A stretch of DNA of 64,000 nucleotides from an uncultured Gammaproteobacteria bacterium (GTDB taxonomy: Bacteria > Pseudomonadota > Gammaproteobacteria > Eutrophobiales > Eutrophobiaceae). The stretch covers positions 1,550,001 through 1,614,000 of the forward strand of contig OY282354.1 of the NCBI GenBank assembly GCA_958295485.1. The letters run 5' to 3'. Shown piece by piece: positions 27,301 through 64,000 of the stretch. Position numbers and translations under genes: made by a program. Below the pieces are notes generated by a model. The model was not told the DNA's origin. It did not search any database and saw only the letters and a program-made list of their open reading frames with translations. Every line of letters begins with the position of its first letter. Positions within the stretch are counted from its first letter, which is position 1.

Positions 27301-30300
27301 TGACGGACTTCGACATTACGATCGCCGCGGGGGCGGCGAGCCAGACCGGAACCTTCACGCTGACGCCGACGGACGACGTCGTGGACGAGACCAACGAGAC
27401 GGTGACGGTAAGCGGCGCCTCAGGCAGCCTGACGGTGAACTCGGCCACGATCGCGCTGACGGACGACGATGCGGCGCCGACCGCGATCACGCTGACGGTG
27501 AACGACAACAGCGTGGGCGAGGGCGATGGGGCAACGACGATCACGGTGACCGCGACGGTGGACGGCGCGACCCGGTTCGCCGAGGCCACGACCGTTGGGG
27601 TGAGCGTGGGGGGCAGCGGCACGGCGACGGCAGTGGACTTTGCGGCGGTGTCGGCGTTCAACATCGTTATCGGAGCCGGGGCGGCGAGCCAGACCGGGAC
27701 GTTCACGCTGACGCCGACGGACGACACGGCAGACGAGACCAACGAGACTATCACGGTGAGCGGTACCTCAGGCAGCCTGACGGTGAACTCGGCCACGATC
27801 ACGTTGACGGACAACGACGCCGCGCCGACTGCGATCACGCTGACGGTGAATGACAACAGCGTGGGCGAGGGCGACGGGGCGACGACGATCACGGTGACGG
27901 CCACGGTGGACGGCACGACCCGGTTCGCCGCGGCCACGACGGTGACGGTGAGCGTGGCGGGTAGCGGCACGGCGACGGCGGTGGACTTTGCGGCGGTGTC
28001 GGACTTCGACATTGAGATCCCGGCGGGGGCGGCGAGCCAGACCGGGACGTTCACGCTGACGCCGACGGACGATGCGACGGACGAGACCAACGAGACGGTG
28101 ACGGTGAGCGGCGCGTCGGGCAGCCTGACGGTGAATTCGGCCACGATCACGTTGACGGACAACGACGCGGCGCCGACCGCGATCACGCTGACGGTGAACG
28201 ACGACGGCGTAGGCGAGGGCGACGGGGCGACCCTGATCACGGTGACGGCGACGGTAGACGGCACGACCCGGTTCGCCACGGCGACGACGGTGACCGTGAG
28301 CGTGGCGGGTAGCGGCACGGCGACGGCGGTGGACTTCGCCGCGGTGACGGCCTTCGACATTACGATTGCGGCGGACGCCGCGAGCGGTACCGGCAGCTTC
28401 ACGCTGACGCCGACGGACGATACGGCGGACGAGACTGATGAGACCATCACGGTGAGCGGCGCGTCGAGCGGCCTGACGGTGAACCCGGATACGATCAGCC
28501 TGACGGACGACGACGGCGCGCCGACCTCACTCACGCTGACGGTGAACGACAACAGCGTGGCCGAAGGTGACGGGGCGACCCTGATCACGGTGACGGCGAC
28601 GGTGAATGGGACGACGCAGTTCGCTACGGTCACGACAGTGCAGGTGAGCGTGGGGGGTAGCGGGACGGCGACGGCGGTGGATTTCGCGGCGGTGTCGGAC
28701 TTCGACATTACGATTGCGGCGGGGGCGACGAACGGTACCGGGACGTTCACGCTGACGCCGACGGCTGACGTCGTGGACGAGACCAACGAGACGATCACGG
28801 TGAGCGGTACCTCAGGCAGCCTGACGGTGAACTCGGCCACGATCGCGCTGACGGATGACGACGCCGCCCCGACTGCGATCACGCTGACGGTGAACGACAA
28901 CAGCGTGGGCGAGGGCGACGGGGCAACGACGATCACGGTGACGGCCACGGTGGACGGCGCGACCCGGTTCGCCGAGGCCACGACCGTTGGGGTGAGCGTG
29001 ACGGGTAGCGGCACGGCGACGGCGGTGGACTTTGCGGCAGTGTCGGCGTTCAACATCGAGATTGCGGCGGGGGCGGCGAGCGGTACCGGGACGTTCACGC
29101 TGACGCCGACGAACGACGTCACGGACGAGACCAACGAGACGGTGACGGTGAGCGGTACGTCGGGCAGCCTGACGGTGAACTCGGCCACGATCACGTTGAC
29201 GGACAACGACGCCGCCCCGACCGCGATCACCTTGACAGTGAATGACAACCGCGTGGGCGAGGCTGACGGGGCGACCACGATCAGGGTGACGGCGACGGTG
29301 GACGGCACGACCCGGTTCGCCGAGGCCACGACCGTTGGGGTGAGCGTGGCGGGCAGCGGCACGGCGACGGCGGTGGACTTCGCGGCGGTGTCGGACTTCG
29401 ACATTACGATCGGGGCCGGGGCGGCGAGTCAGACCGGAACGTTCACGCTGACGCCGACGAACGACACGGTGGACGAGACTGATGAGACGGTGACGGTGAG
29501 CGGCGCGTCGGGCAGCCTGACGGTGAACTCGGCCACGATCACGTTGACGGACAACGACGATGCCCCGACCTCGATCACCCTGACGGTGGACGACGACGGT
29601 GTAGGTGAGGGCGACGGGGCGACCCTGATCACGGTGACGGCGACAGTGGACGGCACGACCCGGTTCGGCGCGGCCACGACGGTGACCGTGAGCGTGGCGG
29701 GTAGTGGCACGGCGTCGGCGGTGGACTTTGCGGCGGTGTCGGACTTCGACATTACGATTGCGGCGGACGCCGCCAGCGGTACCGGGACGTTCACGCTGAC
29801 GCCGACGGACGATACGACGGACGAGACTGATGAGACCATCACGGTGAGCGGCGCGTCAGGCAGCCTGACGGTGAACCCGGACACGATCAGCCTGACGGAC
29901 GACGACGGCGCGCCGACCTCACTCACGCTGACAGTGAACGATAACAACGTGGGCGAGGCCGACGGGGCGACCACGATCACGGTGACGGCGACGGTGAACG
30001 GGGCGACGCAGTTCGCCGCGGCCACGACAGTGCAGGTGAGCGTGGCGGGCAGCGGCACGGCGACGGCGGTGGACTTCGCAGCGGTGTCGGACTTCGACAT
30101 TACGATTGCGGCGGGGGCGACGAACGGTACCGGGACCTTCACGCTGACGCCGACGGCTGACGTCGTGGACGAGACCAACGAGACGATCACGGTGAGCGGT
30201 ACCTCAGGCAGCCTGACGGTGAACTCGGCCACGATCGCGCTGACGGATGACGACGCCGCCCCGACTGCGATCACCTTGACGGTCAACGACAACAGCGTGG

Positions 30301-33300
30301 GCGAGGGCGACGGGGCCACCACGATCACGGTGACGGCGACGGTAGACGGCACGACCCGGTTCGCCGAGGCCACGACCGTTGGGGTGAGCGTGACGGGCAG
30401 CGGCACGGCGACGGCGGTGGACTTCGCAACGGTGGCGAACTTCAACATCGAGATTGCGGCGGCGGCGGCGAGCGGTACCGGGACGTTTACGCTGACGCCG
30501 ACGAACGACGTCACGGACGAGACCAACGAGACTATCACGGTGAGCGGCGCGTCGGGCAGCCTGACAGTGAGCTCGGCCACGATCACGTTGACGGACGACG
30601 ATGCGGCGCCGACGTCGCTCAGCTTGACGGTGAACGACGACAGGGTGAACGAGGGCGGCGGGGCGACCACGATCACGGTGACGGCGACGGTGGACGGCAC
30701 GACCCGGTTCGCCGTTGCCACGACGGTGACCGTGAGCGTGGCGGGGACCGGCGCGCCGACGGCAGTGGACTTCGCGGCAGTGTCGAACTTCGACATTACG
30801 ATTGCGGCGGCGGCGGCGAGCGGCGCCGGGACCTTCACGCTGACGCCGACGGACGATGCGGTGGACGATACCGACGAGACCATCACGGTGCGCGGCGCGT
30901 CGGGCAGCCTGACGGTAAGCTCGGCCACGATCACGTTGGCGGATGATGAAGGGCCGGTGACGCTGTCGATCAACTCGTCGAGCGTGACGGAAGGGAACAG
31001 CGGCTCGAAGGACCTGACGTTCACGGTAACCATGAGTCCGGTGAGTATCGAGCTGGTGGCGGTGGACTACGCGGACGCCGGGAGCGGGACAGCGACCTCG
31101 GGGGCGGACTATGTGGCGATCACCGGCGGCACGCTGATCTTCCCTGCGGGAACCGCGAGTCAGGAGGTCACGGTGTCGGTGACGGGGGACACCGCCGTCG
31201 AGGCGAACGAGACGGTGGTGTTATCGCTGAGCAACCCCGCCAACGCGATGATTGGAACCGGCACGGGGACAGGGACGATCACGAACGACGATGTCGGCGA
31301 GCCTCCCCCGATCGACGACGCCCCGTCGCTGTCGATCGACTCGCCGAGCGTGTCGGAGGGGGACGACGATTCGGTGAGCCTGATGTTCACGGTGACCCTG
31401 AATCCGGCCAGTAGCGTGCCGGTGACGGTAGACTACGTGGTCACCGGCACGGCGAGAGCGGGGACGGACTTTGCGGCGCTCACCGGCGGCACGCTGACCT
31501 TCCCGGCGGGGGCCACGAGTCGGACAATCACGGTGTCGGTGATGGGCGATGCCCTGGATGAAGATGACGAGACCATCGTGGTGACCCTGAGCAACGTCAG
31601 GAATGCGGCCATCGACACGGCGACGGGGACAGGCACCATCACCGACGACGACACGGGCCCGTCGCTGATGATCGACTCACCAAGCGTGGCGGAGGGTGAC
31701 AGCGGTTCGACAAACCTGACGTTCACCGTGACCCTGAGCGAGGCCCTCACCGAGCCGGTGACGGTGGACTATGCGGACGCCGGGACTGGCACGGCAACAT
31801 CGGGGACCGACTACGTGGCGATCCCCGGCGGCACGCTGACCTTCCCGGCGGGAACCACCAGCCGGTCGATCGTGGTAGCGGTGACAGGCGACGTCCTGGC
31901 CGAGCCGGACGAGACCGTTGCGGTGACCCTGAGCAACGCCGCCAACGTAGCCATCGGTCCGGCGACGGGAACCGGCACCATCATCGACGATGACGACGCC
32001 GGCGACGCGCCGACGCTGTCGATCGACTCGCCGCGCGTGACCGAGGGCGCCGCCGGTTCGACGACCCTGACGTTCACCGTGAGCTTGAGCGCGGCGAGTA
32101 CCGAGCAAGTGACAGTGGCCTACGCGGACGCCGGGACCGGCACGGCGACCCCGGGGACGGACTACGCGGCGCTCACCGGCGGCACGCTGACCTTCCCGGC
32201 AGGCACCACGAGCCAGACCTTGAACGTGTCGGTGACGGGCGATGCCCTGGACGAGGCGGACGAGACCGTAGTGGTAACCCTGAGCAATGCGACGAACGCG
32301 ACCATCGGCACGGCGACGGGTACCGGCGTCATCACCGATGACGACGCCCCGCCGTCGCTGTCCATCGACTCGCCGAGCGTAACGGAAGGCGACCCCAGTT
32401 CGACGACCCTGACGGAGGGCGCCGCCGGTTCGACGACCCTGACGGAGGACGCCGCCGGTTCGACGACCCTGACGGAGGACGCCGCCGGTTCGGTAAGCCT
32501 GACCTGGACGGTGACCCTGGACGCGGCCAGCGGGCGGACGGTGACAGTAGACTATGCGGACGCCGGGACCGGCACGGCGACCCCGGGGACCGACTACACG
32601 GCCCTCGGCGCGGGGACGCTGACCTTCCCCGCCGGAGTCACCAGCCGGGCGGTAACGGTGGCAGTGACGGGGGACACTATCACCGAGCCGGACGAGACCG
32701 TAGTGGTCACCCTGAGCAACGCGGCGAACGCGACCATCGGCACGGCGACGGGAACCGGCACAATCATCGACGACGACGTCGACCTGACGCCGAGCTTCGA
32801 TTCTATGACCATCCCGGCCCAGTCCTGGACCCGGAACTGGCCGATCCCGGCATTGACACTACCGGCGGCCACGGGCGGCGACGGCGCGCTGACCTACACG
32901 CTGACGCCGGCGCTACCCAGCGGACTGAGCTTCGATGCGGCCACGCGGGAATTATCAGGCACGCCGACGACGGCGCTGGCGGCGACCGAATACAGCCTGA
33001 CGGCCACAGACGCGGACGGGGATGCAGTGACGCTGAGTTTCACGATCGAAGTGACCGGCCCGATTGTAATATCGATTACGGACGGCGAGGCGGTGGAGGG
33101 CGAGCCCGTCGAGTTCGGGATTACATTGTCCAGGCCCGTGCCGGAAGCCGGGACGCTGCTGGTGGTTTATCGGATAACTGACGGCACGGCCCTGGCGCAT
33201 ACCGACTACACGCCGCCTGCGGGTCAGCGAGGAGAGTTCACGATCGCGGCGGGACAGACTGCGGCGGCGATCGTCGTTCGGACGACGGCCGACGACCTGG

Positions 33301-36129: not shown

Positions 36130-39100
36130 ATGAAGCGCTGGATCGCCGGCTGGCGCCCCTGCCTTGTCCCCTTGCTTCTCCTCGCCTTGGTCGCCGTCGC
36201 GCCCGAGGCCGCCGCGCAGACCCCGACGCTGTCGATTGACTCACCGAGCGTGACGGAGGGGAACAGCGGCTCGACGAACCTGACGTTCACGGTGACCCTG
36301 AGCGCGGTCAGCAGCCAGCAGGTGACGGTGGACTACGCGGACGCCACGACCGGCACGGCCACGTCGGGAACGGACTACACGGCCATCACCGGCGGCACAT
36401 TGACCTTCACGGCGGGGACGACCAGCCTGACCCAGACCTTCAACGTATCGGTGACGGGCGATACGACCGACGAAGTGAACGAGACCGTCGTGGTGACCCT
36501 GAGCAGCGCGACGAACGCGACGATCGCGACGGGTACCGGCACGGGGACGATCACGGACGACGACGGGCCGGCGGTGTCGATCAACTCGCCGAGCGTGACC
36601 GAGGGGGACAGCGGCTCGACGAACCTGACCTTCACGGCGACGTTGAGCGCGGCGAGCGCCCAGCAGGTGACGGTGGCCTACGCCGACGCCACGACCGGCA
36701 CGGCCACTTCGGGGACCGACTACACGGCGATCACCGCCGGCACGCTGACCTTCACGGCGGGGACAACCAGCCAGACCTTCAACGTGGCGGTGACCGGCGA
36801 CACGACCGATGAGGCGAACGAGACGGTGATCGTGACCCTGAGCAGCCCGACGAACGCGACGATCGCGACGGGTACCGGCACGGGGACGATCACGAACGAC
36901 GACGGGCCGACGCTGTCGATCGACTCGCCGAGCGTGACGGAGGGTGACAGCGGCTCGACGAACCTGACCTTCACGGTGACGTTGAGCGTGGCGAGCAGCC
37001 AGCAGGTGACGGTAGACTACGCGGACGCCACGACCGGCACAGCCACGTCGGGGACGGACTACACGGCGATCACGGACGGGACGTTGACCTTCACAGCGGG
37101 GACGACCAGCCAGACCTTCAACGTATCGGTGACGGGCGATACGACCGACGAGGTGGACGAGACCGTCGTGGTGACCCTGAGCAGCGCGACGAACGCGACG
37201 ATCTCGACGGCGACCGGCACGGGGACGATCACGGACGACGATGTGACGCCGGGAGCCAGATGGACGCCGGGCGGCCTCTGGACTCATGATGTGACCACGA
37301 CGAGCCTCATAGGCAAGCTGACGCTTCAGCAGTCAGTCACAATCACCGGAGGAAGCAGGCAATGGGCTAACGCCGCGATTGACGCTTGTCCCTGGACGAG
37401 GGTGACTCCGCCGCTCCCGTCTACCGCGTGTCAGTTACTCAAGGACTATCGTGCGAATGGTTTTCCCAATTTCCAAGATTTGAGGTTGACGAATTTCATT
37501 CCGACCCAAGCCATGATCGACAACGGCGGGGTCGTCATCAGACTTAGGTGGTTAAACTACAACAGCCCTGCCGGGAACAACGTTGGCATGGTCGAGTGGG
37601 TTCCTCTTCTAACGCCTCCGAGTGCGACGCTGGTCCTCACGCCGCCGTCGATTTCGGAGAACGGCGGGGTTGCGACGGTGAGCGCGACGCTCGACCGGCA
37701 GTGGTCCGACGCGGTGACGATCACAGTGTCGGCGGCGGCGGGGACGGGCGCGGACGCTTCCGACTTCACCCTGAGTTCGGCGAACACGCTGACGATCGCG
37801 GCGGGCGAGACGACGAGCACAGGGACGGTGACGCTCACCGCGGTGGACAACGCGATTGATGCGGTGGACAAGGCGGTGACCGTTTCGGGAACCGCCTCCG
37901 ACAGCGTGACCAACGCGCCGCCCGACGTAACGCTGACGATCACGGACGACGACTTGCCGACGCTGTCGATTGACTCGCCGAGCGTGACGGAAGGGAACAG
38001 CGGTTCGAAGGACCTGACGTTCACCGTGAGCTTGAGCGGGGCCCTCACCGAGTCGGTGACAGTGGACTACGCGGACTCCAGGAGCGGGACGGCGACTTCG
38101 GGGACGGACTATGCGGCGATCACCGGCGGCACGCTGATCTTCCCTGCGGGAACCGCGAGCCAGGAGGTCACGGTGTCGGTGAGGGGGGACACCACCGTCG
38201 AGGCGAACGAGACGGTGGTGTTATCGTTGAGCAACCCTGCCAACGCGATGATCGGAACCGGCACGGGGACAGGGACGATCAGGAACGACGATGTCGGCGA
38301 GCCCCCTCCGATAGACGACGCCCCATCGCTATCGATCGACTCGCCGAGTGTGGCGGAGGGGGACGATGATTCGGTGAGCCTGACGTTCACGGTGACCCTG
38401 AGTCCGGTTAGTAGCGTCCCGGTGACGGTGGACTACGTCGTCACCGGCACGGCGAGGTCGGGGACGGACTTTGCGGCGCTCACTGGCGGCACGCTGACCT
38501 TCCCGGCGGGGACCATGAGCCGGACAATCACGGTGTCGGTGATGGGCGATGTCCTGGATGAAGATGACGAGACCATCGTGGTGACCCTGATCAATGTCAG
38601 GAATGCGGCCATCGACACAGCGACGGGGACCGGCACCATCACCGACGACGACACGGGGCCGTCGTTGGCGATCGACTCGCCGAGCGTGGCGGAGGGTGAC
38701 GCCGGTTCGACGGACCTGACGTTCACCGTGACCCTGAGCGAGGCCCTCACCGAGCCGGTGACGGTGGACTATGCGGACGCCGGGACTGGCACGGCAACAT
38801 CGGGGACCGACTACGTGGCTATCACCGGCGGCACGCTGACCTTCCCGGCGGGAACCACCAGCCGGGCGATCGTGGTAGCGGTGACGGGCGACGTCCTGGA
38901 TGAGCCGGACGAGACCGTTGCGGTGACCCTGAGCAACGCCGCCAACGCAGCCATCGGTCCGGCGACGGGCACCGGCACCATCATCGACGATGACGACGCC
39001 GGCGACGCGCCGACGCTGTCGATTGACTCGCCGAGCGTGACGGAAGGTGACGCCGGTTCGACGAACCTGACGTTCACCGTGAGCTTGAGCGCGGCGAGTA

Positions 39101-42100
39101 CCGAGCAAGTGACAGTGGCCTACGCGGACGCCGGGACGGGCACGGCGACCCCGGGGACCGACTACGCGGCCCTCATCGGCGGCACGCTGACCTTCCCGGC
39201 GGGAACCACGAGTCAGACCTTCAACGTAGCGGTGACGGGCGACGTCCTGGACGAGCCGGACGAGACCGTAGTGGTGACCCTGAGCAACGCGACGAATGCG
39301 ACCATCAGCACGGCGACGGGAACCGGCGCCATCGCTGATGACGACGAGCCGCCGGCGCTGTCCATCGACTCGCCGAGCGTGACGGAGGGCGACGCCGGTT
39401 CGGTAAACCTGACCTGGACGGTGACCTTGGACGCGGCGAGCGGCCGGGTGGTGACGGTGGCCTGGGCGGACACCGGGACCGGCACGGCGACCTCGGGGAC
39501 CGACTACGTAGCGATTACCGGCGGCGCGCTGACCTTCCCGGCGGGAACGACGACCCAGACCTTCAACGTAGCGGTGACGGGGGACACGACCACCGAACCG
39601 GACGAGACCGTGGTAGTGGCCCTGAGCAATGCCAGGAATGCCACCATCGGCACGGCGACGGGAGGCGGCACAATCATCGACGACGACCTGACGCCGAGCT
39701 TTGGTTCGGCGACGGTCCCGGCTCAGTCCTGGACCCGGAACTGGCCGATCCCGGTATTGACGCTGCCGGCGGCCATGGGCGGCGACGGCGCGCTGACCTA
39801 TGCGCTGACGCCGGAACTACCCAGCGGACTGAGCTTCGATGCGGCCGCGCGGGAATTATCGGGTACGCCGACGACGATGCTGGCGGCGACCGAATACAGC
39901 CTGATGGCCACGGACGAGGATGGGGATACGGTAGCGCTGAGTTTCACTATCGAGGTAACCGGCCCGATCACTATATCGATTGCGGACGGTCAAGCGGTAG
40001 AGGGCGAGCCCGTCGAGTTCGGGATTACATTGTCCAGGCCTGTGCCGGAAGCCGGGACGCTACTGGTAGTTTATCGGATAACTGACGGCACGGCCCTGGC
40101 GCAGTCCGACTATGCGCCGCCCGCAGGTCAGCAAGGGGAGTTCACGATCGCGACGGGGCAGGACGCGGCGACGATCGTCATTCGGACGACGGACGATGAC
40201 CTGGTGGAGGACGAGGAGACGTTCACGGTAACGCTGGTTGGCACGAGTCATGCGGAGTTGGGCGATGCCGAAGCGACGGGCCGGATCATCGATAACGACT
40301 TGGCGTCCCTGCGCGGCGAGGCGTTGCAATGGTCTCTGGCAGCGTTTGGGCGGACGGTGGCAACGGAAGCGGTGGACGCTATCGGCCAACGCTTCCGGCC
40401 CGGTGGCACGCCGCGCGCGCCACGCGCCGGGTTGCCGGGCACGTCGCTACGAGACGGCATCGGCGCGGCCAGCGCGAGATGGACAACGCACGCCGGCGGG
40501 ACGGCTGCGCTGTCGCAGGCCGGCAGCGGCACGGTTGGTATGGGCCGGCCGACCGGTGCGGTTGGCGGCCCGGCTGGCGCCGCTTGGACGACCGGTGCGG
40601 CCAACGACGCGGCTGACGCGGACTGGACGACTGGTGCGGTTAGCGGCATGGCTGACGCGGACTGGACGACTGGTGCGGTTAGCGGCATGGCTGACGCGGA
40701 CTGGACGACTGGTGCGAGCAACGACGCGGCTGACGCGGACTGGACGACCGGTGCGGGCAACGGCGCGGTTAGCGGCGTGGCTGACGCGGACTGGGCCAAC
40801 GGTGCGGTTAGTGGCGTGGCTGGCGCGGACTGGGCCAACGGCGCGGTTAGCGGCGTGGCCGGCGCGGGCTGGACCACCGGCGCATGGCGGAACTTTTCCT
40901 TGGGCGGTCCCGGCGGCGCGGCATTGCCCGGCGGCTTTTCCGGCCCGGAGCGTTCCCCGCAGGGCGAATTCCTGTCCCAGGTCGCCTTTGAGACGCGCCT
41001 TGACGCGACGGATGAGGATGGCGTCGATGGCGGGTCGGGTCAGGAGTGGACAGTGTGGGGTCGGGGTTCGCGGAGCCAGTTCAGTGGCCAGTCCGGGGCG
41101 CGGATAACATTGGACGGGGAAGTGAACACGGGTTACCTGGGCGCGGACGTGCGGCTGGCTGAGCATGACCTGCTGCTGGGCGTGGCGTTATCACACAGCG
41201 TCGGGGAACTGGACTATCAAGCGGCGGCGGCCGGGTTGAACGAGGGGCAGATAGACTTGGACCTGAGCAGCGTACTGCCCTATGCTCACTGGCAGTTGAA
41301 CGAGCGGGTATCCCTGTGGGGGTTGCTGGGCATCGGCTGGGGGGAGGCGACTTTGACGGACGAGTTCGGGCGGGTAACGACGGACACGGAGATGCGGATG
41401 GCGGCGTTGGGCAGTCGCGGGGAGTTGGCGACGTGGCGGGGTCTGGACCTGGCGTTGAAGGGCGACGCCTTTATAGTGAACATGGAAGGGTCGGAATGGG
41501 AGCAGAGCGATGCAGTGGCGATGCCGGAAGTGGATGCGGATGCGCATCGCGTACGCCTGATGCTGGAAGGCCGGCGCGCCTGGCAGGCAGGGCCGCAACA
41601 ACAGTTGGAGTTAAGCCTGGAGTTCGGCGGTCGCTGGGACGGTGGCGATGCGGACACGGGCGTGGGCGCGGAGTTAGGCGGAGGGTTGGCATACCGCCAT
41701 GCGGCCTGGGGTTTGGGGATTGAGACGCGGGGCCGGTACCTGCTGGGGCATACAGAACGGGCGTTCGAGGAATGGGGCGCGAGCGTGTCGGTAGCGTTGG
41801 ATCCGGGCGTGGAGGGGATTGGCCCGTCGTTGACCTTGTCGCCGACCTGGGGCGAGGCCTCGAGCGGGGTGGAGAACCTGTGGCGGGAAGAGCGGTTGTT
41901 AGGCGCCAGCCTGGGCAGTCAACCGTCCCCGGATGAGCGCGGCGGCCTGCGCCCGAACCGGTTACGGATGGAGTTGGGCTATGGCTTTGAGACCCGCGCG
42001 CAGCGGTTGCTGAAGCTGTACAGCGCGCTGGACGAGGCTGGCCCGGGGAGCAGGAACTGGCGTCTGGGCGGCCTGGTGACGGGCAGGTGGTTCACCTGGG

Positions 42101-42821: not shown

Positions 42822-43319
42822 ATGAACCAGGAAACCACCGTCGTCCCCCTCCGCGACCTGGAGGAAGCCCGAGAACGCGGGATGCTCTCTGGCGAGGTGC
42901 GCATTCTCAAGTGGGGAACCACTGCCGCAATTACCGTGATCCTCCTCTTTCTCACTTACCTTGCGCAACAGATCAGCGAGGTTCGGAGCGACCTTACGCA
43001 ACAGATCAACGAGGTTCGGAGCGACCTTACACTACAGATCAACGAGGTTCGGAGCGGCCTTACGCAACAGATCAACGAGGTTCGGAGCGATCTTACACAA
43101 CAGATCAACGAGGTTCGGAGCGACCTTACACAACAGATCAACGAAGTGCGGAAAGAGATGAATCAAGGGCAAATCGCTATTCATGAACGTTTGACGAGTG
43201 TTGAACACCAACTCGGTTTACGCCCCACATTGACGGAACCCGCTTCGCCGGCAGTGGCGGACGAACAAGCAGTTACAGATATAACAGGGCGTACGGCAAA
43301 ACTGGACAAGAACCGCTAA
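42822..43319 (+). CDS. Membrane-anchored hendecad coiled-coil protein, copy 1
   Basis: The 165-residue protein has a charged N-terminus (LRDLEEARERGML), one transmembrane helix (about residues 31-48, TTAAITVILLFLTYLA) and six tandem 11-residue units QQINEVRSDLT, the hendecad pattern of a parallel coiled coil. A short Pro/Ala tail ends it. The start is supported by GGAGACAGGAA just upstream. A second copy with the same leader lies at 48104-48613, and a distant relative of the same plan at 43936-44298. The function is unknown; a membrane-tethered oligomer is inferred. It follows directly on an IS3 remnant, and the two form a duplicated unit. Confidence 0.75.
   Translation: MNQETTVVPLRDLEEARERGMLSGEVRILKWGTTAAITVILLFLTYLAQQISEVRSDLTQQINEVRSDLTLQINEVRSGLTQQINEVRSDLTQQINEVRSDLTQQINEVRKEMNQGQIAIHERLTSVEHQLGLRPTLTEPASPAVADEQAVTDITGRTAKLDKNR
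42966..43164 (+). repeat. 33-bp tandem repeat within coiled-coil gene copy 1
   Basis: Six units of 33 bases (CAACAGATCAACGAGGTTCG plus 13 more) code the hendecads. Copy 2 has three. Confidence 0.85.
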
Positions 43320-43633: not shown

Positions 43634-43948
43634 ATGAAAATTGCTAATTACTTACTCGCCTTCTTTCTGATTATGGCTTCTTTCTCTGCATATACAGATT
43701 CCCACGTGGATTACAGGCATGGGGAAGGTGAAAAAGAACATTCAGGTTATTGGAAGGCGGAAGATTGCAAAGAAATCAGCGAGGCCTCTGGTACGTTTCT
43801 TTATATATCAGGGGAACTATTGGAAGAGGCTGATATTTCCGATAAGAAGGGGGCGGAAAGAGACGCTGAAGAATCCTTCGAAACCGCGCTGGCATTCTCT
43901 GAATTAGCGGCAAACTATGCCAAGAATTTTGAAGCCTACTGTAAGTGA
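43634..43948 (+). CDS. Small secreted protein of unknown function
   Basis: This 104-residue protein has a signal peptide (MKIANYLLAFFLIMASFSAYT) and an acidic, helical mature part with two cysteines (EDCKEI near residue 45 and the next-to-last residue). GGAG lies 9 bases before the ATG. It is convergent with the next gene and overlaps its 3' end by 13 bases. The AT-rich composition suggests an origin different from the core genes. No family is recognised. Confidence 0.65.
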   Translation: MKIANYLLAFFLIMASFSAYTDSHVDYRHGEGEKEHSGYWKAEDCKEISEASGTFLYISGELLEEADISDKKGAERDAEESFETALAFSELAANYAKNFEAYCK

Positions 43949-44298
43949 TCAAATGCCCTGCTTGATTCGATTCGCACGACACGTTTATGCAAACCTGCAA
44001 CCTCAGCGCGCAAACCTATGACCTCAGCGCGTAAACCCGAGATTTCAACGCGCAGTCCGGTATGTTGCTGTTCCATTGCAATACGCAAGTCCGCGAGCTC
44101 CGTGTAGAGAAACGTGAAGCCGCCTAAAATGGCGGTAAGAACAAACGCCCCCGTCCAAAGCGCTAAACGGAATTCGCCGCGTCGGACGAAATCTTCGCTC
44201 CAGCGTTCCGCAGGGGCATTTTCTGAACGAGGCTTCTCTATTGTTTCCTTGGTCTCTTTCCGGGCAATGGCATCTTCAGAGTTCATTGTCATATCCAT
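43936..44298 (-). CDS. Membrane-anchored coiled-coil protein
   Basis: The ATG at 44298 is chosen because GGAGG lies 9 bases upstream; the frame is open further to 44334. The 120-residue protein has a charged N-terminus, one transmembrane helix (LALWTGAFVLTAILGGFTFL, about residues 46-65) and a C-terminal coil of repeating GLRAEV- heptads. The plan is the same as the two hendecad proteins nearby, with a different coil. The function is unknown. Confidence 0.65.
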   Translation of the reverse strand: MDMTMNSEDAIARKETKETIEKPRSENAPAERWSEDFVRRGEFRLALWTGAFVLTAILGGFTFLYTELADLRIAMEQQHTGLRVEISGLRAEVIGLRAEVAGLHKRVVRIESSRAFDHLQ

Positions 44299-44372
44299 AA
44301 TAGTAAACCTCCATGATAAGATAGTAAACCTCAACTCCTGATTTGATGTAAACCTTACCGTCCTTCCACTTG

Positions 44373-46001
44373 CTATGGGTCGGTGTCATGCGACTTCAGG
44401 TCATTCAGTTTTTCTTGTGTAAATTGTAAAAGTTCTGTAAGTCCCTGTTCCTGTGCCAGCATTTGCGCGCGTTTTATATCTTCAATAGCTGCTGGATACT
44501 GCTGGAGACGTTCTTTGGCTAACCCTCGGCCATAACAGGCCTCGGCGAATCTTGGATTGAGGTTTATTGCCTCGTCAAAGTCCTCAATCGCTGCCGGATA
44601 CTGTTCCAGGTTATACTTGGCGATGCCTCGGTTGTAGTAGGCAATGGCATATTTCGGATTGAGGTTTATCGCTATGTCATAGTCTGCCACCGCTGCTTCA
44701 TACTGCCTCAGGTTATACTTGGCCAAGCCCCGGTTATTGTAGGCTTCGGCATATTCTGGATTGAGGTTTATCGCTATGTCGTAGTCTGTAATCGCTGCCT
44801 CATATTGACCTAGTTCATCCTTGGCGAGGCCTCGGTTATTGTAGGCAATGGCATATTTCGGATTGAGGTTTATCGCTATGTCGTAGTCTGCAATCGCCGC
44901 CTCATATTGACCTAGTTTAGCTTTGGCATTGCCTCGGTTGTAGTAGGCAATGGCATATTCCGGATTGAGGTTTATCGCTATGTCGTAGTCTGTAATCGCT
45001 GCCTCATACCGACCCAATTTAGTCTTGGTGCCGCCCCGGTCGTGATAGGCTTCGGTGAATCTTGGATTGAGGTTTATCGCCTTGTCGTAGTCTGTAATCG
45101 CTGCCTCATATTGACCAAATTTATCCTGGACAACCCCTCGGTTGTAGTAGGCTTTGGTATATTTCGGATTGAGGCTTATTGCCCTATCGTAGTTTTCGAT
45201 AGCTGCTGCATAGTTCCCTTGCCGAAAGTGTTTGTTACCACTTTGGAACCATTGTTCACTGGTTTTGTGGCTGACAGGTCGGTCTTGACTATGTGAGGCA
45301 GCAAAGCCTGCAAAATCTCTGAAAATGCTCTGCTCTTCCAATCCGTAGTATTTTTGCAGTAGCTCCCTGATTTCTTTTTTATCTCCTTTAGATATGGGTA
45401 TTTCCTTATAAGCCGATTCTTTGATGGGTCGGGCAGAAAAAATAAAACAACTTTGTTGCGCAACGATCCGATTTTCATTTGGGGGTGGCTTCCAATAATA
45501 AATCGGATAGTTGTCTTCATATAATCCTTTTTTATCAGGGACTGCTTGATTTTCAAGTAATTTTTCAATGTCTTTTTCTGAGTCGTCGGGAGTGACTTCT
45601 TCGAAAGTCAGGATATTGCCGCGATTGATGATAAACACTTTGCCGTCGTTGCTATCATCTTGGCAGGCAAACCACAGGGCGGTATGAAAATTATCGGTGG
45701 CATCAATGAGGCAGGTCGCAGCTCCTTGGTGTTGTAATGCGGCCAGCAATTCTAAATCGTTAAGCTCTTTATTTTGTCGGTGTGCGTAGCCTTCATTTCT
45801 GGCAGGTTCAATCAGGGATTTATCCAGATATTCAATTAGGTTGGGGGCACCTTCCCCGTTTGAATTTTTTAGCCGTCTATCGGCACTGCTTACTAACTCC
45901 CATTTGTGGTTCTCTTGTCCGCGAAAAATAAGGACAGCGTTTTCGTCCCATTCTTCTATTGCCCTCGACAGCCTTTCTTCGTATGCAGTCAGCTTTTCCA
46001 T
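44373..46001 (-). CDS. FRG-domain protein with tandem TPR repeats
   Basis: The N-terminal 200 residues carry the FRG domain: the name motif FRGQENHKWEL, then LLAALQHQGAATCLIDAT, ALWFACQ and RIVAQQSCFIFSA. FRG domains occur in phage-associated and defence-type proteins; their activity is unproven as far as I know. From about residue 250 eight tetratricopeptide repeats follow, each 34 residues with the AAI-DYD-AINLNP pattern; several are nearly identical at the DNA level (102-bp units). TPRs usually mediate protein binding, so a sensor or partner-docking role is inferred. ATG at 46001 is preferred over a TTG at 46028. It is a single gene within IS-rich DNA. Confidence 0.85.
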   Translation of the reverse strand: MEKLTAYEERLSRAIEEWDENAVLIFRGQENHKWELVSSADRRLKNSNGEGAPNLIEYLDKSLIEPARNEGYAHRQNKELNDLELLAALQHQGAATCLIDATDNFHTALWFACQDDSNDGKVFIINRGNILTFEEVTPDDSEKDIEKLLENQAVPDKKGLYEDNYPIYYWKPPPNENRIVAQQSCFIFSARPIKESAYKEIPISKGDKKEIRELLQKYYGLEEQSIFRDFAGFAASHSQDRPVSHKTSEQWFQSGNKHFRQGNYAAAIENYDRAISLNPKYTKAYYNRGVVQDKFGQYEAAITDYDKAINLNPRFTEAYHDRGGTKTKLGRYEAAITDYDIAINLNPEYAIAYYNRGNAKAKLGQYEAAIADYDIAINLNPKYAIAYNNRGLAKDELGQYEAAITDYDIAINLNPEYAEAYNNRGLAKYNLRQYEAAVADYDIAINLNPKYAIAYYNRGIAKYNLEQYPAAIEDFDEAINLNPRFAEACYGRGLAKERLQQYPAAIEDIKRAQMLAQEQGLTELLQFTQEKLNDLKSHDTDP

Positions 46002-46229: not shown

Positions 46230-46397
46230 ATGCAATTGGCAGCAGTGCTTATACCTGCTCAAGAAGGTGGGTTTATTGCCACGAATCCGGAAACAGGCAC
46301 GACTACCCAGGGAGAAACCATTGAGGAAGCTTTAGCCAACCTGCAAGAGGCCATAAGGCTTTATCTTGAAGAATTTCCGTTGGAAGCATACGGCTAA
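46230..46397 (+). CDS. HicB-family antitoxin (orphan)
   Basis: The 55-residue protein reads MQLAAVLIPAQEGGFIATNP, then GTTTQGETIEEALANLQEAI, the partial RNase-H-like fold of HicB antitoxins. The ATG at 46230 has GGAGG 8 bases upstream. HicB normally pairs with the small dsRNA-binding toxin HicA, adjacent on the same strand; no HicA is visible on either side, and the protein lacks the C-terminal DNA-binding extension. It is an orphan or a solitary HicB-like regulator. Confidence 0.75.
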   Translation: MQLAAVLIPAQEGGFIATNPETGTTTQGETIEEALANLQEAIRLYLEEFPLEAYG

Positions 46398-46518: not shown

Positions 46519-46755
46519 GTGGGAAATTTAACGATTAGAAATCTTGACGATGATGTGATTAAGGCTTTGAAGACGCAAGCGAAGACAAATCAGCGTTCGC
46601 TGGAAGCGGAGATCCGTTATGTATTGACGCAACGAGCCGACCGCCGTAGCCGTCTCGCCGACTTTCGAGAACGAATCCGGCAAATCGCCGACATGACTTC
46701 CGGCGCCGTCCAGACAGATAGCGTGGAACTTCTGCGCGAAGATCGAAACCGGTGA
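46519..46755 (+). CDS. FitA/VapB-type ribbon-helix-helix antitoxin
   Basis: The 78-residue protein begins GNLTIRNLDDDVIKALKTQA, then RSLEAEIRYVL, the Arc-type ribbon-helix-helix of FitA-like antitoxins, and has a C-terminal toxin-binding tail. The start is GTG at 46519, with AGGAAA upstream. Its TGA overlaps a GTG that begins VKLTVD, the usual first residues of a VapC toxin, but that toxin frame changes to IS21 sequence after about six codons. A matching VapC C-terminal fragment lies about 3.7 kb downstream at 50495. The antitoxin itself looks intact. Confidence 0.8.
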   Translation: MGNLTIRNLDDDVIKALKTQAKTNQRSLEAEIRYVLTQRADRRSRLADFRERIRQIADMTSGAVQTDSVELLREDRNR

Positions 46756-46985: not shown

Positions 46986-47273
46986 TCAAGCCGCTTTTTT
47001 CGAGCGTGTTGTAATTTTCAGTTCCCGCCCTACCTTGGCTAGCATATTCACCAACGCATCAATACTGAATTTGAATATGTGACCGTTCATCAATGCACTC
47101 ACCTCAGGCTGGTTTATACCCAGCAAGGTAGCGGCATCTTTCTGCTTGAGGCCTTTCTTGCGGATGTATTCTCGAATTTCAAGCAGTAATTCCGTACGGA
47201 CTTTCATGTTGGCGGCTTCCTGTTTGTTAAAACCGATATCCTCAAAGATGTTGTCCGTCGTGAGATTTTTCAT
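46986..47273 (-). CDS. XRE-family HTH antitoxin (HigA-like)
   Basis: The 95-residue protein has a helix-turn-helix in KGLKQKDAATLLGINQPEVSAL, with the rest matching the compact antitoxins that accompany RelE/HigB-type toxins (KFSIDALVNMLAKVG). ATG at 47273 has AGAGG upstream and follows the toxin stop (47278) by 4 bases; the frame open to 47393 lies inside the toxin gene. It should bind and neutralise the toxin and repress the operon at the palindrome at 47608-47627. The order toxin first, antitoxin second is that of higBA. Confidence 0.85.
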   Translation of the reverse strand: MKNLTTDNIFEDIGFNKQEAANMKVRTELLLEIREYIRKKGLKQKDAATLLGINQPEVSALMNGHIFKFSIDALVNMLAKVGRELKITTRSKKAA

Positions 47274-47277
47274 CGCG

Positions 47278-47601
47278 TTACCTCTTAATCTGTTTAAGCC
47301 TGTTTCTGGCCAGGTCCAAGTCTTGTCTTGATGTACGCTGTGTCTTTTTTCGGAATGCATGAAGCACGTAAATTGACTCACCGAATTTGGCAATATAAAT
47401 CACCCGGTATTGTCCTTCATACTGGACCCGGATTTCCCTGACACCCGGACCGATACTACTCATGGGTTTCCAATCAGATGGCTCATAACCTGACTGTACA
47501 GCCATCAGTTCAGCGCCGACTATTTGTCTAACCTTCTCCGGGAGAGACTTCACGTCATCCCTGGACGTGCCTAACCAGGTAATCGGCTTTAAATTCGTCA
47601 T
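47278..47601 (-). CDS. RelE/HigB-family toxin (Gp49-like)
   Basis: The 107-residue protein matches phage Gp49-like / HigB toxins: KPITWLGTSRDDVKSLPE, then REIRVQYEGQYRVIYIAKF, IYVLHAFRKKTQRT and a basic C-terminus. These proteins cleave mRNA on the ribosome. The ATG at 47601 lies only 5 bases after the -10 TATAAT on the minus strand, so the transcript is expected to be almost leaderless. It is followed by its antitoxin after 4 bases. The pair sits in IS-rich DNA. Confidence 0.85.
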   Translation of the reverse strand: MTNLKPITWLGTSRDDVKSLPEKVRQIVGAELMAVQSGYEPSDWKPMSSIGPGVREIRVQYEGQYRVIYIAKFGESIYVLHAFRKKTQRTSRQDLDLARNRLKQIKR

Positions 47602-48103: not shown

Positions 48104-48613
48104 ATGAACCAGAAAACTACTGTCATCACCCTCCGCGACCTGGAGGAAGCCCGAGAACGCGGGATGCTCTCCGGCGAGGTGCGCATTCTCAAGTGGGGAA
48201 CCATTGCCGCGATTACCGTGATCTTCCTCTTTCTCACTTACCTTGCGCAACAGATCAACGAGGTTCGGAGCGACCTTACACGACAGATCAACGAAGTGCG
48301 GAGCGACCTTACACGACAGATCAACGGTCTCCGGGGAGAGATCAGCGAAGTGCGGAAAGAGATGAATCAAGGGCAAATCGCTATTCATAAACGTTTGACG
48401 AGTGTTGAACAGCAACTCGGTTTACGCCCCACATCGACGGAACCCGCTTCGCCGGCAGTGGCGGACGAACAGGCAAGTACAGATATAACAGGGCGAGCGG
48501 CAAAACCGGACGAACAGGCAAGTACAGATATAACAGGGCGAGCGGCAAAACCGGACGAACAAGCAGTTACAGATATAACAGGGCGAGCGACAAAACCGGA
48601 CAAGAACGGCTAA
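48104..48613 (+). CDS. Membrane-anchored hendecad coiled-coil protein, copy 2
   Basis: The 169-residue paralogue of 42822-43319 has a nearly identical leader, N-terminus and transmembrane helix. It differs in repeat content: only three 11-residue QINEVRSDLT-type units, but three 15-residue units DEQASTDITGRAAKP at the C-terminus where copy 1 has one. The ATG follows GGAGACAGAAA. Both coding frames have stayed open while their minisatellites changed, which suggests selection. The function is unknown; a membrane-tethered oligomer is inferred. It follows IS3 remnant copy 2. Confidence 0.75.
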   Translation: MNQKTTVITLRDLEEARERGMLSGEVRILKWGTIAAITVIFLFLTYLAQQINEVRSDLTRQINEVRSDLTRQINGLRGEISEVRKEMNQGQIAIHKRLTSVEQQLGLRPTSTEPASPAVADEQASTDITGRAAKPDEQASTDITGRAAKPDEQAVTDITGRATKPDKNG

Positions 48614-49232: not shown

Positions 49233-50402
49233 ATGAAGACACATAAAACAATCAGATACCGCCTGCACCCGCAAACAAAGACAAAGGCCAATAAACTCTT
49301 TGCTCTTGCCGGTGCCCGTCGGTTTATCTGGAATCATTTTGTTGAAAAGTTGCAAGAAGATTATAAATCTTATAGCAAGTGTAATCCGAGCTACTATACC
49401 CTAGGTCTTCAATTCACCCGCCTTCGAGATCAGTTACCATGGTTGCAAACATATTCAGCAAACATAGTAAAATATTCTCTGAAACCGCTTGAAACTTGCT
49501 ACAAGAAATATTGGAAAAATCAAGGCGGATTACCGAGATTTCATGGTAAATACACTCATCCACCAAGTATCAGCTTGCCCCAAGGAACATTTAAACTAAA
49601 TCGAAAATCGTTATATATCCAAAAAATTAGTCAAATTAAATTGTCCGGTAATAATCCTTACCCGGATAGCAAATGCAAGACTATCACAATCAAACATGAA
49701 GCCGGTAAATGGTATGCCTACGTAGTTTATGAAGTCGAAACATCAAAGCTGCCTGAGTCAATTAACCCAGTTGGCATCGACCGTAACGTAGGACAGATAA
49801 CGCTATCAGACGGAACACGTTATAACTTACCGGATACAACGAAATTAAACGCGCGCAAACGCCGGTATCAAAAAATGATGGCAAGACGACAACGCCTGAA
49901 TCGCAAGCAGGGTATTGCACCGTCCAAACGATACCTGAAAGCAAAATTGCTTCATGCCAAAACCCAGCAGCGTATCGTTCAAGCCCGAACAAACTGGTGC
50001 CACCAGACATCCCGTGAAATTGCCAATAAATATAACCTGACATATATGGAAAATCTGAATACAAAGGGAATGACTGCCAGCGCCAAAGGAACTATAGACA
50101 AACCAGGTAAAAATGTGAAACAAAAAGCCGGTCTAAATAAAGCGATATTACAATCCGGCTGGAGCAAACTGGAACAATATTTAGACTACAAAACAACAAT
50201 TATAAAAGTACCATCTGCCTATACCAGTCAAACATGTAACAAATGCGGACATACAGATAAGACTAATCGTAAAACACAAACAAAATTTCATTGTGTTAAA
50301 TGCGATCATCGGGCTAACGCAGATCTGAATGCTGCGCTAAATATCTTGGCCTCCGGGATTGGGGCTACTGCACGTGGAGATAGCGCCGTTAGGCGATCGT
50401 GA
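49233..50402 (+). CDS. tnpB: TnpB, IS200/IS605-type RNA-guided nuclease, without tnpA
   Basis: The 389-residue protein is full length for TnpB. RuvC-type catalytic residues are all present: aspartate in GIDRNVGQITL, glutamate in YMENLNTKGM and aspartate in ADLNAALNIL. The zinc finger is CNKCGHTDK with CVKCDH. TnpB nucleases use a guide RNA transcribed from the 3' end of the element to cut DNA. The gene is markedly AT-richer than the neighbouring core genes and has no tnpA beside it, so it is a solo IS1341-type copy. A TATAAT at 49219-49224 lies 8 bases before the ATG. The conserved 3' part and downstream sequence (about 50340-50450) are where a guide RNA scaffold should lie. Confidence 0.92.
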   Translation: MKTHKTIRYRLHPQTKTKANKLFALAGARRFIWNHFVEKLQEDYKSYSKCNPSYYTLGLQFTRLRDQLPWLQTYSANIVKYSLKPLETCYKKYWKNQGGLPRFHGKYTHPPSISLPQGTFKLNRKSLYIQKISQIKLSGNNPYPDSKCKTITIKHEAGKWYAYVVYEVETSKLPESINPVGIDRNVGQITLSDGTRYNLPDTTKLNARKRRYQKMMARRQRLNRKQGIAPSKRYLKAKLLHAKTQQRIVQARTNWCHQTSREIANKYNLTYMENLNTKGMTASAKGTIDKPGKNVKQKAGLNKAILQSGWSKLEQYLDYKTTIIKVPSAYTSQTCNKCGHTDKTNRKTQTKFHCVKCDHRANADLNAALNILASGIGATARGDSAVRRS

Positions 50403-62312: not shown

Positions 62313-64000
62313 ATGAAACGCTGGATCGCCGGCTGGCGCCCCTGCCTTGTCCCCTTGCTTCTCCTTATCTTCGCCATCGCGCCCGAGGCCGCCGCGCAGA
62401 CGCTGTCGATCAACTCGCCGAGCGTGACCGAGGGGAACAGCGGCTTTCCGAACCTGACGTTCACGGTGACGTTGAACCCGGCGAGCAGCGGGCAGGTGAC
62501 GGTGCAATACAGCACCAGGGCGAGCCGCAGCACGGCCACGCCGTCGACGGACTACGGGACGACCACCGGCACGCTGACCTTCGCGGCGGGGACGACCAGC
62601 CAGACCTTCAACGTGTGGGTGAGGGGCGATACGACCGACGAGGCGAACGAGACCGTCGTGGCGGAGATTGGCAACGCGAGTGGCGCGACGATCTCGACGT
62701 TTAGGGGCACGGGGACGATCATCGACGACGACGGACCGACGGTGTCGATCAACTCACCAAGCGTGACGGAGGGGGACAGCGGCACGACGAACCTGACGTT
62801 CACGGCGACGTTGAGCGCGACGACCGTCCAGCAGGTGACGGTGGCCTACGCCGACGCCACGACCGGCACGGCCACGTCCGGGACGGACTACACGGCCATC
62901 ACCGCCGGGACGCTGACCTTCGCGGTAGGCGCCACCAGCCAGACCTTCAACGTGGCGGTGAGGGGCGATACGACCGTCGAGGAGAACGAGACCGTCGTGG
63001 TGACCCTGAGCAGCCCGACGGGCGCGACGATCTTGACGGGTACCGGCACGGGGACGATCACGGACGACGACATCACGCTGTCGATCGACTCGCCGAGTGT
63101 GACGGAGGGGAACAGCGGCACGACGAACCTGACGTTCACGGTGACCTTGAGCGCGGCGAGCGGCCGGCAGGTGACGGTGACGGTGGACTATGCCGACGCC
63201 ACGACCGGCACGGCCACGTCCGGGACGGACTACACGGCGCTCACCGCCGGGACGCTGACCTTCCCGGCGGGGACGACCAGCCAGACCTTCAACGTAGCGG
63301 TGATGGGCGATACGACCAACGAGGCGAACGAGACCGTCGTGGTAACCCTGAGCAGCGCGACGAACGCGACGATCTCGACGGCGACCGGCACGGGGACGAT
63401 CACGGACGACGACTTCCCGACGCTGTCGATCAACTCGCCGAGCGTAGCGGAGGGGGATAGCGGCACGACGAACCTGACGTTCACGGTGACGTTGAGCGCG
63501 GCGAGCGCCCAGCAGGTGACGGTGGCCTGGGCCGACGCCGGGACCGGCACGGCCACGTCCGGGACCGACTACACGGCGCTCGGCGGCGGCACGCTGAACT
63601 TCGCGGCGGGGACGACCAGCGCAGACATCATCGTATCGGTGAGGGGCGACACGCTGGGCGAGGCGAGCGAGACCGTCGTGCTGACGTTGAGCAACCCGAC
63701 GAACGCGACGATCTCGGTGGGTACCGGCACGGGGACGATCGGAAACGACGAGGGGGCGACGCTGTCGATCGACTCGCCGGGCGTGACGGAGGGGGACAGC
63801 GGTTCGACGACCCTGACGTTCACGGTGACCCTGAGGCAGGCCAGTACCGAGCAGGTGACGGTGGCCTACGCCGACGCCGGGACCGGCACGGCCACGTCCG
63901 GGACGGACTACACGGCGATCACCGGCGGCGCGCTGACCTTCGCGGTGGGGGAAACCAGCCAGACCTTCGACGTATCGGTGACGGGCGACACGCTGGACGA
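62313..64000 (+). CDS. Third Calx-beta repeat surface protein, 5' part (runs off window)
   Basis: ATG at 62313 begins MKRWIAGWRPCLVPLLLL, nearly the same signal peptide as giant protein 2, with cleavage expected after PEAAA. The frame is open for 562 codons to the window end. It contains about five Calx-beta units starting LSI-(N/D)-SPSV-(T/A)-EG, each ending in I-x-DDD or a variant, with units about 85-110 residues long. By analogy it should end in an autotransporter barrel, but that part is not in the window. It is GC-rich like its paralogues and follows hemL by 460 bases of shared cassette. Confidence 0.85.
   Translation, partial: MKRWIAGWRPCLVPLLLLIFAIAPEAAAQTLSINSPSVTEGNSGFPNLTFTVTLNPASSGQVTVQYSTRASRSTATPSTDYGTTTGTLTFAAGTTSQTFNVWVRGDTTDEANETVVAEIGNASGATISTFRGTGTIIDDDGPTVSINSPSVTEGDSGTTNLTFTATLSATTVQQVTVAYADATTGTATSGTDYTAITAGTLTFAVGATSQTFNVAVRGDTTVEENETVVVTLSSPTGATILTGTGTGTITDDDITLSIDSPSVTEGNSGTTNLTFTVTLSAASGRQVTVTVDYADATTGTATSGTDYTALTAGTLTFPAGTTSQTFNVAVMGDTTNEANETVVVTLSSATNATISTATGTGTITDDDFPTLSINSPSVAEGDSGTTNLTFTVTLSAASAQQVTVAWADAGTGTATSGTDYTALGGGTLNFAAGTTSADIIVSVRGDTLGEASETVVLTLSNPTNATISVGTGTGTIGNDEGATLSIDSPGVTEGDSGSTTLTFTVTLRQASTEQVTVAYADAGTGTATSGTDYTAITGGALTFAVGETSQTFDVSVTGDTLD

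What the first reader, a model, noticed from the sequence alone, without database searches (positions are those of the whole stretch)
44373..46001. FRG domain fused to eight near-identical TPRs
FRG domains are linked to phage-related contexts. The fusion to a recently expanded TPR array (102-bp units) suggests a sensor or adaptor changing its binding surface by unit number. It lies among toxin-antitoxin genes and IS remnants.
Basis: partly seen in the sequence, partly recalled or inferred. Interest (0 to 1): 0.5.

Follow-up and report, generated by a model that had tools for sequence, protein, structure and literature searches.

The report
FRG enzyme fused to TPR repeats
A bacterial gene joins a suspected anti-phage enzyme domain (FRG) to a row of protein-binding TPR repeats, and its closest relatives, found mostly in bacteria that appear to live in marine sponges, usually keep the two parts together, which points to one sensor-plus-effector unit rather than a chance fusion.

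Summary
Confirmed: one 542-aa gene (44373-46001, minus) with an FRG domain and eight TPRs. 'Near-identical' overstates it: units 2-7 share 53-82% of residues. FRG matches the PADLOC phage-defence candidate PDC-S15; its model's best PDB matches are ADP-ribosyltransferase (ART) folds, Z at most 6.8. The pairing recurs. In 19 genomes that look sponge-derived (five phyla), of 81 FRG genes found 55 are fused to TPRs and 17 directly followed by a TPR gene; in control windows 5 of 272 genes are TPR-linked. Elsewhere 55 FRG loci plus 10 from a 398-genome draw have none; L013 is the one further fused case. TPR-linked FRGs share one tree branch. A restriction-modification-type gene adjoins 15 of 81 versus 4 of 272. 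Unit number differs among related proteins; the window's units vary mostly at TPR ligand positions. Best reading: an ART-like effector whose TPR array senses or recruits a partner, probably in phage defence. Function and catalysis are untested; the window copy has no restriction gene beside it. New variant of a known kind.

The parts
44373..46001 (-). FRG-TPR gene, 542 aa plus stop
   Evidence: full-length model pLDDT 87.6, pTM 0.61
45261..46001 (-). FRG domain with its C-terminal extension (aa 1-247); PADLOC PDC-S15 match aa 11-236; ART-like model; R27, H91, T96, D100, R178, Q182 present
44445..45260 (-). eight 34-residue TPR units (aa 248-519, 102-bp period)
44376..44444 (-). C-terminal helix and tail (aa 520-542)
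43936..44334 (-). small ORF 38 bp downstream on the same strand, membrane segment and coiled coil by eye; one of 7 related places in this genome, so probably not a specific partner
   Evidence: (no Pfam family)
46230..46397 (+). HicB/DUF7387-like antitoxin-type ORF (neighbour, not shown to belong)
46519..46755 (+). FitA-like ribbon-helix-helix antitoxin-type ORF (neighbour, not shown to belong)
46986..47601 (-). HTH_37 plus Gp49 (HigB-like) toxin-antitoxin-type pair (neighbour, not shown to belong)

Best explanation
The gene encodes a cytoplasmic two-part conflict protein. Its N-terminal FRG domain is an ART-fold effector that would use NAD+ (as a NADase or ADP-ribosyltransferase), and its C-terminal TPR solenoid is the sensor/adaptor that binds a protein partner and holds or releases the effector. 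A plausible trigger is a phage or plasmid protein; the outcome would be growth arrest or death of the infected cell. In some relatives the module is encoded with a DNA methyltransferase or restriction system, so there it may answer to, or back up, modification-based self/non-self discrimination. SHOWN here: domain make-up; FRG/TPR coupling as fusion or adjacent gene pair; one branch across phyla; enrichment beside restriction-modification-type genes; unit-number differences; variation focused on ligand positions in the window's array; ART-like model. INFERRED: cytoplasmic site, NAD+ use, sensing, phage as trigger, cell arrest.
For: PDC-S15 match E 3.9e-29. Foldseek rows 1-30 and the 50 VIA rows shown are, by title and my knowledge, ART-fold proteins: cholera toxin A1 Z 6.8, TreTu/TreX, Tpt1/KptA, pertussis toxin; RES toxin in Foldseek. 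R27, G28, T96, F111, Q182 invariant in 41 of 41 FRG sequences and present here. FRG called an ART-superfamily member and possible NADase in PMC9503650 (passages). 55 of 81 fused + 17 of 81 directly followed by a TPR gene vs 5 of 272 control genes. One branch of the FRG tree, 96/94, 80 rows: 57 fused, 17 split, 6 none; the 49 other rows have no TPR. RM-type neighbour 15 of 81 vs 4 of 272; methyltransferase gene ending 8-72 bp upstream or overlapping in L032, L033, L035, L037, L040; BsaWI-type REase 3 bp downstream in L133. Variation at TPR positions 2,5,9,12,13 in the window: entropy 1.71 vs 0.45, permutation 2e-5, pN/pS 1.12 vs 0.43. No FRG in the 6 sibling genomes; in one sibling the tyrS 3' side holds an ispH-like and other genes instead (by eye).
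Against: No restriction gene beside the window copy (7 neighbours scanned) or directly upstream of its nearest relative L030 (Mfd and CsiV). ART fold rests on no significant match: Foldseek best E 0.019, Z under 8; no PDB chain matched the FRG profile at E <= 1; no catalytic Glu equivalent was identified. TPR genes are common near FRG genes: 25 of 457 other ORFs >=150 aa in the FRG loci, two of them duplicate FRG-TPR genes, but 7 of 481 in control windows. RM references came from 8 of the FRG loci; without those loci it is 10 of 73, and one of the 15 (L126) is a DUF499 gene, not a methyltransferase. Controls came from 3 of the 19 genomes. Variable ligand positions are general to TPRs. Within-array identity is low in most other arrays (mean 0.38), so fast array turnover is not general.
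Confidence: 0.5

Rival explanations
1. Host-interaction effector: one of the TPR 'eukaryotic-like proteins' of sponge symbionts, delivered to sponge cells, with FRG modifying a host target.
For: The family is concentrated in MAGs of lineages that look sponge-associated (bins named like six of the 19 are Ircinia sponge MAGs, PMC9531527 passages); the same passages list TPR among enriched eukaryotic-like domains.
Against: The chains printed begin close to the FRG domain and show no obvious signal peptide by eye; close links to DNA methyltransferase and restriction genes; FRG without TPR occurs in other bacteria and in viral contigs. Secretion was not tested.
Confidence: 0.2
2. RM accessory: the TPR array docks FRG on a methyltransferase/restriction complex, and the protein works only as part of restriction-modification.
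For: 15 of 81 FRG genes adjoin RM-type genes of several kinds (type IIG, ISP, MTase-S fusion, DUF1156/DUF499, Mod) vs 4 of 272; 29 of 74 loci hold any such gene vs 7 of 55 control windows (8 of the 74 supplied the references).
Against: 66 of 81 FRG genes have none adjacent by that rule, the window copy has none; the partner type changes freely; TPR is the constant partner (72 of 81).
Confidence: 0.15
3. Toxin-antitoxin or addiction-like gene: FRG a toxin held in check by the TPR part or by a neighbour, with no sensing of phage.
For: RES (an ART toxin) is among the structural matches; split forms with overlapping or near-abutting genes look like a toxin and its partner; the window copy lies among TA-type genes.
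Against: A covalently fused antitoxin with 2 to 32 variable units is unusual; variation at binding positions suggests outside ligands; the small ORF downstream is one of 7 related places in the genome.
Confidence: 0.1
4. Ordinary domain shuffling in TPR-rich genomes without functional meaning.
For: TPR genes are common near FRG genes (25 of 457 other ORFs).
Against: 72 of 81 vs 5 of 272; one branch keeps the link in five phyla and in both fused and split form.
Confidence: 0.05

Closest known systems
PADLOC PDC-S15 (phage-defence candidate; FRG family)
   Same: The FRG region matches 13 PDC-S15 models at E <= 1, 11 of them at 1.2e-5 or better; best PDLC04938 over aa 11-236.
   Different: The match covers only the FRG part; the TPR array is extra. 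Such candidates are called uncharacterised in PMC12482510 (passages).
FRG as ART-superfamily effector (PMC9503650)
   Same: FRG is placed in the ART superfamily with a possible NADase role in immunity (passages); my model agrees.
   Different: A TPR partner is not in the three FRG passages seen; the earlier paper they cite for it was not read.
RES-Xre toxin-antitoxin and Tpt1/KptA
   Same: ART folds among the structural matches of the FRG model; NAD+ use (recalled, and PMC9503650 passages).
   Different: No sequence match at E <= 1, no TPR array (recalled), different partner.
VMAP/AP-ATPase-TPR conflict systems
   Same: Effectors joined to TPRs in bacterial conflict systems (PMC7159879 passages).
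   Different: NTP-dependent multi-gene switches; 'frg' has 0 occurrences in that text.
Sponge-symbiont TPR eukaryotic-like proteins
   Same: TPR, same kind of bacteria (PMC9531527 passages).
   Different: Enzyme-like domain and, in part, RM neighbours; no host target known.

Membership tests
Pfam FRG (PF08867) | match above gathering score | tested here: met
   61.0 bits vs 25
TPR | 34-residue helical-hairpin units above cut-off | tested here: met
   8 stretches of TPR_1, 200.8 bits vs 27.8; paired helices in the model
PADLOC PDC-S15 | HMM match over most of the model | tested here: met
   PDLC04938 positions 51-265 of 276, E 3.9e-29
PADLOC PDC-S15 | phage protection | not testable with these tools
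   needs phage challenge
ART superfamily | ART fold | tested here: inconclusive
   top rows are ARTs, but Z at most 6.8 and Foldseek E 0.019 at best
ART superfamily | NAD-binding and catalytic residues | tested here: inconclusive
   R27 invariant 41 of 41; the alignment to cholera toxin A1 opens at residue 21 against residue 1, which would put R27 opposite R7 if ungapped (inference; role of R7 recalled); no catalytic Glu equivalent identified
Restriction-modification accessory | RM gene beside the gene | tested here: not met
   window: none among the 7 neighbouring ORFs scanned, 42.8-47.6 kb; relatives: 15 of 81
Toxin-antitoxin pair | separate small antitoxin gene next to the toxin | tested here: inconclusive
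   a 132-aa ORF lies 38 bp downstream on the same strand, without Pfam family and with 6 related places elsewhere in the genome
Host-delivered eukaryotic-like protein | secretion into host | not tested
   no signal-peptide or secretion prediction was run

The most novel reading that the evidence does not exclude
FRG-TPR (fused or as an FRG|TPR gene pair) is a distinct immune family, shared between unrelated phyla of sponge symbionts, in which an ART-type effector is aimed by a TPR array whose unit number and ligand positions are retuned by evolution, and which has repeatedly teamed up with DNA-methylation systems of different types: a repeat-based pathogen sensor for dense symbiont communities.
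Probability: 0.35. Interest if true: 0.75.

Novelty: new variant of a known kind. Interest (0 to 1): 0.52.

Why it matters
FRG is a widespread but uncharacterised defence candidate. A branch in which FRG is nearly always tied to a TPR array gives a direct handle on what switches FRG on: the split FRG|TPR pairs let effector and sensor be tested apart, and related proteins with 8 to 12 units allow a test of what unit number does. It may also explain some of the TPR proteins of sponge symbionts that are usually put down to host interaction.

Tried and rejected
Housekeeping role: rejected; FRG in 23 of 193 genomes, own included, and in none of the 6 other genomes of the genus. Chance fusion: rejected. 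Viral origin of the fusion: nine viral FRG loci, none with TPR. A solved FRG structure: none by profile at E <= 1. Sponge restriction of FRG as a whole: rejected, FRG without TPR occurs in other bacteria. L119 as a case of unit-number change: dropped after checking, because its array holds a run of unknown bases and breaks into a second ORF; it still counts as one fused gene. L031 runs off its contig, so its unit count is a lower bound.

Literature: ten searches; 'FRG domain' is in 8 papers, PDC-S15 in one; no title or abstract start listed was about FRG-TPR, but several lists were capped. I saw passages of PMC9503650, PMC12482510, PMC9531527, PMC7159879 and PMC9519451 and found no hit in PMC12839542; everything else was seen as listing only. 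Most subscription papers are not held and no bioRxiv collection is searched, so absence in print is not shown. Sponge source: bin names of the jk18x form stand in the Ircinia paper; for other MAGs it rests on lineage and record names (recalled). The source of the window's genome and of L013's genome is unknown.

Rows dropped before counts: the second ORF of L047 and the duplicates L043 600 aa and L125 369 aa, L053 did not pass the FRG model (29 of 30 loci L049-L078 counted), and L001, L013, L017 were set apart as TPR-bearing (L017 is the same gene as L030). L010/L025 and L075/L076 are duplicates or near-duplicates among the 55 control loci; no ORF with two TPRs lies anywhere in those 55. L002-L029 hold flanks of 1.5 kb or less. 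The tree counts rows: domains under 150 aa were left out, L017 and L030 are both in, and 'split' there has no limit on the gap. TPR counts come from my own profile at 3 bits. Control windows were about evenly spaced, a few moved or skipped to avoid FRG loci already fetched.

Full report
OBSERVATION. The ORF at 44373-46001 (minus) encodes 542 aa. Pfam gives FRG at aa 24-118 (61 bits, cut-off 25) and eight TPR_1 stretches. TRF sees a 102-bp period, 6.3 copies, 80% matches. Units 2-7 share 53-82% of residues and 67-88% of bases; units 1 and 8 are more divergent. So the architecture is right and 'eight near-identical' is too strong. Synonymous difference among units 2-7 is 0.33 per site, uncorrected: a tandem expansion, but not a very recent one.

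THE FRG PART. It matches 13 PADLOC models at E <= 1, all PDC-S15, best E 3.9e-29 over aa 11-236; PMC12482510 calls such candidates uncharacterised (passages). PMC9503650 (passages) puts FRG in the ART superfamily and suggests NADase action. A model from 41 sequences has pLDDT 91.3 and pTM 0.87. Foldseek's first 30 rows are ART-fold proteins by title and my knowledge, but with E of 0.019 or worse; VIA-align gives cholera toxin A1 Z 6.8, TreTu 6.6, Tpt1 6.2, middling by that tool's own note. R27, G28, T96, F111 and Q182 are invariant in 41 of 41 sequences; H91, D100 and R178 are in 39, 40 and 39 of 41; all are present in the window protein. No PDB chain matches the FRG profile at E <= 1.

THE FUSION RECURS. 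Of 29 FRG matches in 23 of 193 genomes, own included, two besides the window's carry TPRs: L013 and L017. A scan of the genome collection with the FRG parts of these three gave 40 loci. The 19 with the best E-values (L030-L048) lie in MAGs of Poribacteria, Chloroflexota, Latescibacterota, Acidimicrobiia and Gammaproteobacteria (L030 is the same gene as L017); by my profile 16 of the 19 are fused to TPRs, two are split (L032, L047) and L048 has one weak unit. Six of the 19 bear names of the jk18x form that PMC9531527 uses for Ircinia sponge MAGs; for the rest a sponge source is judged from lineage and record name, not checked. I then took every FRG gene found in these 19 genomes, 81 in all (fetched): 55 are fused to two or more TPRs, 17 are followed on the same strand within 60 bp by a separate TPR gene, and 9 are neither, two of those within 300 bp of a contig end. 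Leaving out the 19 loci that chose the genomes: 39 fused and 15 paired of 62. In 55 control windows from three of these genomes, 5 of 272 genes of at least 200 aa carry TPRs or are followed so. In 55 FRG loci outside the 19 genomes (26 of L002-L029 and 29 of L049-L078) no TPR is in the FRG ORF or anywhere in the stretch held, and none in 10 more FRG loci from a draw of 398 genomes of the phylum.

TREE. Of 129 FRG rows, every TPR-linked one, the window's included, is in one branch (support 96/94) of 80 rows: 57 fused, 17 split, 6 without; the 49 rows outside have none. Fused and split forms are interleaved inside it. The window row groups with L030/L017 (82/74, weak).

NEIGHBOURS. In L032, L033, L035, L037 and L040 the FRG gene starts 8-72 bp after, or overlaps, a DNA methyltransferase gene: type ISP, MTase-S fusion, type IIG-like, DUF1156. 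Genes similar to the type III Mod of L043 adjoin others (L112, L114); a BsaWI-type endonuclease lies 3 bp downstream in L133; GmrSD genes are near in L111 and L046. By one BLAST rule 15 of 81 FRG genes adjoin an RM-type gene (one of them, L126, a DUF499 gene) against 4 of 272 controls; the references were drawn from eight of the FRG loci, and without those eight it is 10 of 73. N6_Mtase genes number 3 to 30 per genome in the 19 genomes. The window gene has no such neighbour: it lies among HicB-like, FitA-like and HigBA-like genes, and the small ORF just downstream on its strand is one of 7 related places in the genome. L030, L034, L038 and L041 have ordinary neighbours too. In one sibling genome (G002) the right side of tyrS is collinear with the window and the left side holds an ispH-like gene and others instead of the FRG region (by eye); a second sibling contig ends there.

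THE ARRAY. Three Caldilineaceae proteins with 73-76% identity over the first 300 aa have 8, 11 and 12 units, and two tandem paralogues in L148 with 77% have 10 and 7; assembly of long arrays could be at fault in short-read MAGs, and one candidate case, L119, was dropped for that. By my profile fused proteins hold 2 to 32 units. Other close pairs keep the same number (L042/L043, L144/L155, L162/L163). Units resemble others of the same array more than those of other arrays in 38 of 46 arrays, the window's being 0.56 against 0.35. In the window the variation sits at positions 2, 5, 9, 12 and 13, the ligand-facing positions of TPRs as I recall them: entropy 1.71 against 0.45, permutation 2e-5, pN/pS 1.12 against 0.43. 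Other FRG-TPR arrays lean the same way more weakly (2.02 against 1.33), and it is a general trait of TPRs.

READING. An ART-like effector tied, by fusion or by adjacent genes, to a protein-binding array that differs in length and in binding face, in a branch enriched beside restriction genes, is best explained as a sensor-effector of cellular defence. Nothing here shows NAD+ use, a ligand or phage protection. The main rival is a host-directed protein of symbionts.

Noticed in passing
window 42822-43319 and 48104-48613: Two related short ORFs with a likely membrane segment and 33-bp coiled-coil repeats lie on either side of the FRG region.
   Followed up: no
window 43936-44334: A small membrane/coiled-coil-like ORF just downstream of the FRG gene belongs to a family with 7 places in this genome.
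   Followed up: partly
window 49233-50402: An ORF that reads like an IS200/IS605 TnpB protein between the FRG region and tyrS (by eye, no family search).
   Followed up: no
window 26771-30943, 36223-39696, 62399-63992: Arrays of 339-351-bp repeats (TRF), in part inside giant ORFs that look like Calx-beta-type adhesins (by eye).
   Followed up: no
L148:5947-11716 and L126:5925-10109: Three tandem FRG-TPR genes behind a type IIG-like enzyme, and one FRG-TPR protein of 1394 aa with about 32 TPR units downstream of a DUF499 gene.
   Followed up: partly
L030:5977-8373: Between its TPRs this relative carries several near-identical degenerate repeats of unknown nature.
   Followed up: no
L037, L045, L048 FRG-TPR C-termini: A glycine-rich C-terminal stretch that looks shared by proteins of three phyla (by eye).
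   Followed up: no
G193, G197, G198, G203 (Poribacteria genomes): Each holds 19 to 30 N6_Mtase-family matches, many in open frames of about 1030-1100 aa: a large expansion of type IIG-like enzymes.
   Followed up: no
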